The notes under the pieces are model-generated. The model saw only the letters and a program-made list of their open reading frames with translations, made no database searches and was not told the DNA's origin. A program made the translations under genes and the position numbers. Of a stretch of 34,948 bases of DNA, positions 22,074-22,538 are shown piece by piece. This stretch comes from a virus: IMG/VR virus record IMGVR_UViG_3300042691_004353, positions 1 to 34,948 of that record, one strand, 5' to 3'. Position 1 is the first letter of the stretch, and each line of letters opens with the position of its first letter.

Positions 22074-22329
22074 CGTTTTTTTAGGCAAAGGATTCCCAAG
22101 GGGTGGAAGCCTCCACCTCTGTCCCAGAGATGCGAATGTAGCACTCCCAGACCACGCATGACGCAGCGATTCATTCATCGAGAGTCTTGTCCCACCGCTT
22201 TCCTCTCGACTACTCCAGTCCCTCGCTGACAGGCTGGAACCTAAACACGGGGTGAGGTGCTAGGTGTCTTTCCTTCCGCGCAGCCGATTCAGGCCCATTG
22301 ATCTCGCTCGGAGTGCGGTCAGCGGCCAC
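22074..22329 (-). other. Structured leader of leftward operon, no convincing gene
   Basis: This stretch holds several stem-forming segments on the minus strand. They are a near-complete helix 22257-22265 with 22239-22248; a 6-bp helix 22223-22228 with 22164-22169 enclosing a perfect 7-bp helix 22203-22209 with 22178-22184; and a 6-bp hairpin at 22102-22117. No ORF here looks protein-like. It may be a structured 5' leader or a second non-coding RNA. Confidence 0.4.
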
Positions 22330-22503
22330 AAAAAGAAAAACCCACATAGGTTCTAGAGCGTGGCTCTTGGCATGAGCAGAATGGGAACAAATGAGGCGTC
22401 AAGCCAAGGAACTCATCAATTCCCACTCCACACACGCCCTAGACCTATATGGGCTTGTTTCCTTGGTTCACGCTTTCGTTCCAACGGTTGCCACACCGCT
22501 GAC
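22330..22503 (-). ncRNA. Candidate structured RNA with kissing loops
   Basis: On the minus strand a 21-bp helix (22453-22433 with 22362-22341, one bulged A, two G-U pairs) closes two hairpins. The first has arms 22424-22412 and 22395-22383 (two 5-bp stems joined through a UUG/UUG internal loop) with a 16-nt loop. The second has arms 22377-22374 and 22366-22363 with a 7-nt loop. The two loops contain complementary CUUGGC and GCCAAG. The closing helix is followed at once by a U-rich tract (UUUUUCUUUUU, 22340-22330). A promoter lies at 22510-22538. Function unknown. Confidence 0.6.
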
Positions 22504-22509
22504 CCTCGT

Positions 22510-22538
22510 AGGATAGCGGAAACCGAGACTGGTTGCAA
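22510..22538 (-). promoter_or_regulatory. Leftward promoter for the structured RNA/left operon
   Basis: Minus strand TTGCAA, 17-nt spacer, TATCCT (4 of 6 plus 4 of 6). Expected start is near 22503. Moderate strength by consensus; supported by its position just before the structured RNA and divergent from the early promoter. Confidence 0.4.

What the first reader, a model, noticed from the sequence alone, without database searches (positions are those of the whole stretch)
22330..22503. Compact minus-strand RNA with a 21-bp closing helix, kissing loops and a U-tract end
Seen: arms 22433-22453 and 22341-22362 pair over 21 bp with one bulge. Inside are two hairpins whose loops contain perfectly complementary CUUGGC (22403-22408) and GCCAAG (22366-22371). 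The helix is followed at once by an 11-nt U-rich tract, and a promoter-like sequence lies about 50 bases before the helix. No ORF explains this. Inference: a small phage non-coding RNA folded by a loop-loop pseudoknot, or a ligand- or protein-sensing terminator leader for the whole leftward operon.
Basis: partly seen in the sequence, partly recalled or inferred. Interest (0 to 1): 0.75.

Follow-up and report, generated by a model that had tools for sequence, protein, structure and literature searches.

The report
Large knotted phage RNA family

Summary
In detail: the 21-bp bulged helix, inner hairpins and U-tract lie at the stated coordinates and fold far better than shuffles (z = -7.6). It is only the 5' domain of a larger minus-strand RNA, about 22504 to 22085. 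Relatives (148 distinct core loci held) share the layout: a -10 box 5-6 nt before the RNA, a helix P0 that pairs the 5' end with sequence past the U-tract, a 5' hairpin kissing a distal loop, a double-pseudoknot core and a 3' domain with another kissing pair. These are supported by compensatory changes, and G.U exceeds A.C on this strand. The proposed loop-loop pair (CUUGGC/GCCAAG) is not conserved: GCCA is complementary to the P1 loop UGGC, and the variable loop pairs with a 5' strand. That helix (S1:S2) is hypervariable yet self-complementary. No Rfam family matches and I found no description in the literature I could search. The RNA heads the replication operon here, but in relative L186 the neighbouring operon runs towards it, so I favour an autonomous early phage RNA, possibly self-recognising, over a cis leader. 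Function is inferred, not shown.

The parts
22533..22538 (-). -35-like hexamer TTGCAA, 17 nt before the -10 box
   Evidence: sequence; not listed by the strict scan
22510..22515 (-). -10-like box TATCCT, ending 5 nt before P0
   Evidence: same position in 23 of 26 diverse relatives vs 9% of control positions
22495..22504 (-). P0 5' strand GGUCAGCGGU, predicted RNA 5' end; its last bases overlap P1
   Evidence: pairs with 22317-22326; variants GUCAUCGG/CCGAUGAC, GGUCGG/CCGACC, GUCUG/CAGAC, others read by eye
22485..22498 (-). P1 hairpin CGGU(GUGGCA)ACCG; loop UGGC (22490-22493) is the 5' side of kissing pair K1
   Evidence: P1 covaries (3 of 4 pairs changed on both sides); K1 permutation test 0/20000
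22459..22473 (-). S1, 5' strand of the hypervariable helix (core CCAAGGAA 22459-22466)
   Evidence: pairs with S2; alignment-free swap test
22433..22453 (-). P2 closing helix, 5' arm
22412..22424 (-). P3 inner hairpin, 5' arm
   Evidence: 5 pairs with changes on both sides among 9 relatives
22396..22411 (-). S2, variable loop of P3, complementary to S1 (UUCCUUGG 22404-22411)
22383..22395 (-). P3 inner hairpin, 3' arm
22363..22377 (-). P4 hairpin GCUC(AUGCCAA)GAGC; GCCA 22368-22371 is the 3' side of K1
   Evidence: L084-type relatives have UGAC/GUCA instead (by eye)
22341..22362 (-). P2 closing helix, 3' arm with one bulge
22330..22340 (-). U-tract UUUUUCUUUUU (possible partial intrinsic terminator)
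   Evidence: a U-tract precedes the core in 134 of 148 distinct loci
22317..22326 (-). P0 3' strand GCCGCUGACC, beyond the U-tract
22267..22320 (-). Core: CGN(ACUCCGN)NCG hairpin whose loop UCCG (22309-22312) pairs with CGGA (22275-22278); Pd hairpin 22282-22295 whose loop pairs with bases just past GGAARRAAA
   Evidence: 98.4% and 99.4% of cells paired, covariation scores 0.509 vs 0.145 and 0.394 vs 0.126 shuffled
22088..22266 (-). 3' domain, including kissing pair K2 CAGCG (22224-22228) with CGCUG (22164-22168), helices Pa, Pb, Pc and terminal hairpin 22102-22117
   Evidence: A2 pair counts: K2 100% paired with changes on both sides at 2 pairs; Pa and Pb covary

Best explanation
The minus strand from about 22504 to 22085 encodes an autonomous noncoding RNA of about 0.42 kb, part of a so far undescribed family of multi-pseudoknotted RNAs carried in the early region of many phages. 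SHOWN by comparative sequence: a fixed -10 box at the 5' end; helix P0 pairing the 5' end with sequence past the U-tract; 5' hairpin P1 kissing a distal loop (K1); closing helix P2 and U-tract; in long subtypes an extra hypervariable but self-complementary helix S1:S2; a double-pseudoknot core; a 3' domain with kissing pair K2. INFERRED: it is transcribed early from its own promoter; the P2 hairpin with U-tract may stop some transcripts at about 175 nt while the rest become the P0-closed full-length RNA; the full RNA acts in trans as a folded body. The turnover of S1:S2 and K1 letters with pairing kept is most simply read as free letters with strict pairing, and possibly as selection for homotypic recognition (dimer or oligomer formation, or telling own RNA from a co-infecting phage's RNA).
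For: Fold z -7.56. Homologues on the same strand near Erf/exonuclease genes of related phages. Pair counts above shuffles and above all slides: A3, A4, A2, A5, A6. S1:S2 own duplex -16.6 vs swapped -7.4 kcal/mol in one group, -17.2 vs -11.9 in the other. K1: 0 of 20000 permutations reach the observed mean; 7-10 bp perfect complements of unrelated sequence in about ten types, at 20-23 nt from the U-tract. CM R1 finds L012, L064 and L072, not chosen by the DNA pattern, in which UCCG/CGGA is replaced by other complementary sets. G.U vs A.C cells 46:10, 79:10, 35:26, 20:0 favour RNA of this strand. Promoter spacing. In L186 the neighbouring genes run towards the RNA, and downstream genes differ between relatives: replication initiation, RecE-like exonuclease or Erf.
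Against: No transcript data. The convergent arrangement rests on one locus with small, mostly unassigned ORFs. In most relatives the RNA does precede same-strand genes, so a cis role is open. S1:S2 cannot easily form in full while P3 is closed (about 12 bp in a loop of about 15 nt), so its partner may be intermolecular or part of an alternative fold. 14 of 148 loci lack a U-tract next to the core, several short subtypes lack S1:S2 and L165 appears to lack the 5' domain, so modules are separable. Related sequences inflate shuffle-based statistics.
Confidence: 0.55

Rival explanations
1. Cis-acting leader of the early replication operon: the P2 hairpin plus U-tract is a conditional terminator, and the rest of the RNA is a processive-antitermination or attenuation element acting on the polymerase that made it.
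For: In the window the RNA is the first element of the leftward operon; in L152 it follows a P22 Cro gene, where lambdoid phages carry nut/tR1-type control; a U-tract precedes the core in 134 of 148 loci.
Against: Convergent neighbours in L186; different downstream genes; conserved structure runs about 245 nt past the U-tract; 14 of 148 loci lack the U-tract.
Confidence: 0.27
2. Small RNA that simply ends at the U-tract (about 175 nt), with the downstream conservation belonging to another element.
For: Helix followed by U5CU5 looks like an intrinsic terminator; 5' and 3' domains recombine (L084 and L085 share a 5' domain but not a 3' domain).
Against: P0 joins the RNA 5' end to sequence beyond the U-tract with compensatory changes.
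Confidence: 0.1
3. Replication-primer or origin RNA, ColE1 RNA II-like, at the head of the replication operon.
For: Position next to the replication initiation gene and hypervariable loops, as in plasmid incompatibility RNAs (general knowledge).
Against: Complementary partners lie on the same strand rather than on an antisense RNA; some relatives place the RNA before recombination genes instead; no antisense promoter found inside the RNA in the window.
Confidence: 0.06
4. Chance inverted repeats or a DNA-level element.
For: None beyond the possibility.
Against: Covariation across many types and G.U over A.C asymmetry.
Confidence: 0.02

Closest known systems
GOLLD and ROOL RNAs (large ornate RNAs of phages and prophages; PMC12286853)
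   Same: Large noncoding phage RNAs of unknown function with many kissing loops, low sequence conservation but strong covariation, and (GOLLD) modular 5' and 3' regions.
   Different: No Rfam match to either; about 0.42 kb rather than often more than 0.8 kb for GOLLD; early region near cro, replication or recombination genes rather than tRNA islands; oligomerisation not tested.
phi29 pRNA
   Same: Complementary loops within one RNA species that could pair between molecules (general knowledge).
   Different: Different size, fold and genome place; P22-like carriers are not known to need a packaging RNA; no Rfam match.
HK022 put RNA and lambda 6S / pR' leader
   Same: Structured RNA at the head of a long phage operon with a nearby terminator (general knowledge).
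   Different: Much larger, multi-pseudoknotted, hypervariable; not always upstream of an operon.
P4 CI and P1 c4 immunity RNAs
   Same: Phage RNAs whose complementary segments set immunity specificity (general knowledge; complementarity to leader sequences mentioned in PMC7567579).
   Different: No matching segments found elsewhere in the window genome; different fold; no Rfam match.
int-alpA RNA (RF02996)
   Same: Phage RNA lying directly 3' of this RNA in L026 (36.6 bits, above cut-off), L152 and L199 (below cut-off).
   Different: A separate downstream element of about 70 nt; no match in the window.

Membership tests
Any Rfam 15 family, including GOLLD, ROOL, riboswitches and ribozymes | Covariance-model match at or above the gathering score | tested here: not met
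   None over the RNA in the window or in 23 relatives; only int-alpA beside it
GOLLD/ROOL-like ornate RNA | Homo-oligomeric RNA-only complex | not testable with these tools
   needs cryo-EM or mass photometry
GOLLD/ROOL-like ornate RNA | Large phage ncRNA with covarying kissing interactions | tested here: met
Intrinsic-terminator leader | Strong hairpin followed by a U-tract | tested here: met
   the scanner's short-loop limit misses it
Intrinsic-terminator leader | Upstream of the regulated operon on the same strand in all members | tested here: not met
   L186 convergent
P4/P1-type immunity RNA | Complementary target segments elsewhere in the phage | tested here: not met
   no 12-nt match in the window
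HK022 put | Polymerase-bound antitermination in cis | not testable with these tools
   needs a transcription assay

The most novel reading that the evidence does not exclude
A phage family uses a large folded RNA carrying a hypervariable but always self-complementary helix as an RNA-only self/non-self tag, assembling with copies of itself and not with those of co-infecting phages, or setting superinfection specificity.
Probability: 0.2. Interest if true: 0.9.

Novelty: new variant of a known kind. Interest (0 to 1): 0.72.

Why it matters
If right, this is an unrecognised large noncoding RNA family, common in uncultured phages, with several pseudoknot and kissing interactions already fixed by covariation, which makes it directly open to structure work. 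The hypervariable self-complementary helix gives a concrete handle on why large phage RNAs exist at all, an open question for GOLLD and ROOL. It also shows that annotation can call such an RNA a hypothetical protein (MW202753.1, UOF81610.1).

Tried and rejected
Rfam at gathering and permissive thresholds: nothing over the RNA, only int-alpA next door. BLASTN of RNAs of five types against INPHARED: only MW202753.1 carried it; a weaker hit, MW202484.1, was not followed. The genome-contig scan gave 17 pattern hits; of the seven read out only the Akkermansiaceae contig L260 is real. MW202674 was checked between its acyltransferase and replication genes: no such RNA seen. An automatic P0/P1 finder worked only for close types and is noisy for the rest. 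MAFFT across P2 subtypes misaligns the 3' arm, so groups were counted separately. Considered and dropped: RNase P, group I intron, tmRNA and omegaRNA-like readings (no Rfam support, no matching gene context). A search of the literature for core sequence strings found nothing; the genome search cannot draw relatives for a virus record.

Full report
Observation. On the minus strand the arms 22433-22453 and 22341-22362 pair over 21 bp with one bulge, enclose an inner hairpin and a small hairpin, and are followed at once by UUUUUCUUUUU. The 174-nt strand folds at -79.1 kcal/mol against -50.7 +/- 3.75 for shuffles (z -7.56). No Rfam family matches and no tRNA is present. The window is a P22-type phage record from IMG/VR (portal, coat, scaffold, terminase, Erf, exonuclease). 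The RNA sits between the rightward Erf/exonuclease operon and the leftward operon.

Relatives. Exonuclease relatives carry a homologous stretch on the same relative strand. Reading them showed that conservation continues past the U-tract through GACCGNACUCCGNNCG...GCGCGGAA to a terminal CACCCUUGGG element, about 420 nt in all. A pattern from that core found 111 stretches in viral contigs and a second, exact core string 110, with a few contigs in common. 148 distinct core loci are held, 134 of them with a U-tract upstream. One lies in a 582-kb Akkermansiaceae contig with phage genes around it (L260). One is in a named record, MW202753.1, where it is annotated as a protein.

5' end. In 23 of 26 diverse types a -10-like hexamer ends just upstream of the P0 strand (5-6 nt in most), against 9% of control positions. 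In the window this is TTGCAA, 17 nt, TATCCT. The strict consensus scan did not report it, because the match is below its threshold.

5' domain. In nine window-like relatives the proposed pairs form in 90.2% of cells against 86.1% for shuffles and at most 46% when slid, with 14 pairs changed on both sides. In a second group of 16 the figures are 92.7% against 88.4%. P0 joins the RNA 5' end to sequence beyond the U-tract, with variants GGUCAGCGGU/GCCGCUGACC, GUCAUCGG/CCGAUGAC, GGUCGG/CCGACC and GUCUG/CAGAC and further ones read by eye (such as GUCUAG/CUAGAC). P1's loop is complementary to a segment usually 20-23 nt before the U-tract. Across 24 types the own pairing beats every one of 20000 permutations, for example GUGGAAGC/GCUUCCAC, UGUACCGGCA/UGCCGGUACA, and GUCGAAACC/GGUUUCGAC against GUCGCACCC/GGGUGCGAC in a close relative. 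In the window this pair is short, UGGC/GCCA, and on its own it is not better than swapped partners (window row); its support comes from the family.

CUUGGC/GCCAAG is perfect in the window, but the loop side is variable and only 2-4 of 6 positions pair in relatives. That loop instead pairs with a strand just after P1 (S1:S2).

Hypervariable helix. S1:S2 is strongly self-complementary in each RNA (own -16.6 vs swapped -7.4 kcal/mol in 16 members of one group; -17.2 vs -11.9 in nine of the other, where three members are not better than all swaps). Yet S1 has 54% mean identity and 15 distinct forms among 16 RNAs, while the adjacent P2 arm has 98% and 3 forms. L109 and L111 share 97.6% of the preceding 705 nt but have different S1:S2. 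Recombination between phages can move such segments, so this is not by itself proof of positive selection. The helix is absent from short subtypes such as L142 (by eye).

Core and 3' domain. In 26 diverse sequences the core pairs form in 98.4% of cells (shuffles 80.1%, slides at most 50.5%), covariation score 0.509 vs 0.145 +/- 0.018. Two of these helices cross others. In 47 distinct sequences, mostly from the second scan, the figures are 99.4% and 0.394 vs 0.126. Because the search patterns fixed UCCG and CGGA, their invariance is by construction, but CM hits L012, L064 and L072, not chosen by pattern, replace them with UCCU/AGGA, UGUU/GACA and GGG/CCC (partners read by eye). In the 3' domain the kissing pair K2 is 100% paired with changes on both sides at two pairs, and helices Pa and Pb covary; Pc and the terminal hairpin are less well aligned.

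Strand. Non-Watson-Crick cells are G.U rather than A.C by 46:10, 79:10, 35:26 and 20:0, as expected for RNA of the minus strand.

Context and function. The RNA precedes a replication initiation gene in L236, a RecE-like exonuclease in L222 and Erf in L221. In L152 it follows a P22 Cro gene. In L186 the neighbouring genes run towards it. This favours an autonomous RNA over an operon-specific leader, but rests mainly on one locus. No 12-nt segment of the window RNA recurs elsewhere in the window. GOLLD and ROOL are the nearest known kind in character (PMC12286853), not in sequence or fold as far as Rfam can tell. I commit to an early, autonomous, folded RNA; homotypic recognition through S1:S2 and K1 is a possibility, not a result.

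Noticed in passing
L026:3306-3378:-, L152:2554-2627:-, L199:4855-4928:-: Rfam int-alpA RNA lies directly downstream of the large RNA in several relatives (36.6 bits in L026, below cut-off in the other two), suggesting the two are linked in some phages.
   Followed up: partly
L265:2347-2778:+ (MW202753.1, UOF81610.1): A predicted protein in a public phage genome overlaps the RNA almost entirely and is probably a mis-annotation.
   Followed up: partly
L084 and L085: The two share the same 5' domain type but carry different 3' domain types, so the RNA's halves recombine as modules; L165 appears to have the core without the 5' domain.
   Followed up: partly
window:22578-22637: Divergent + strand promoter (TTGACA, 16 nt, TACTAT) overlapping a GTAAACTGTTTAC inverted repeat, possibly an operator for the Erf operon.
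   Followed up: no
window:21879-22073:-: Small 64-aa ORF with two CxxC motifs starting just after the RNA; a similar ORF is present in some relatives, no Pfam match.
   Followed up: partly
window:23107-23349:+: Winged helix-turn-helix protein (HTH_39) in the rightward early operon, a candidate regulator.
   Followed up: no
L134:5631-5697:-: Sub-threshold match to the Betaproteobacteria toxic small RNA family (31.7 bits, cut-off 50).
   Followed up: no
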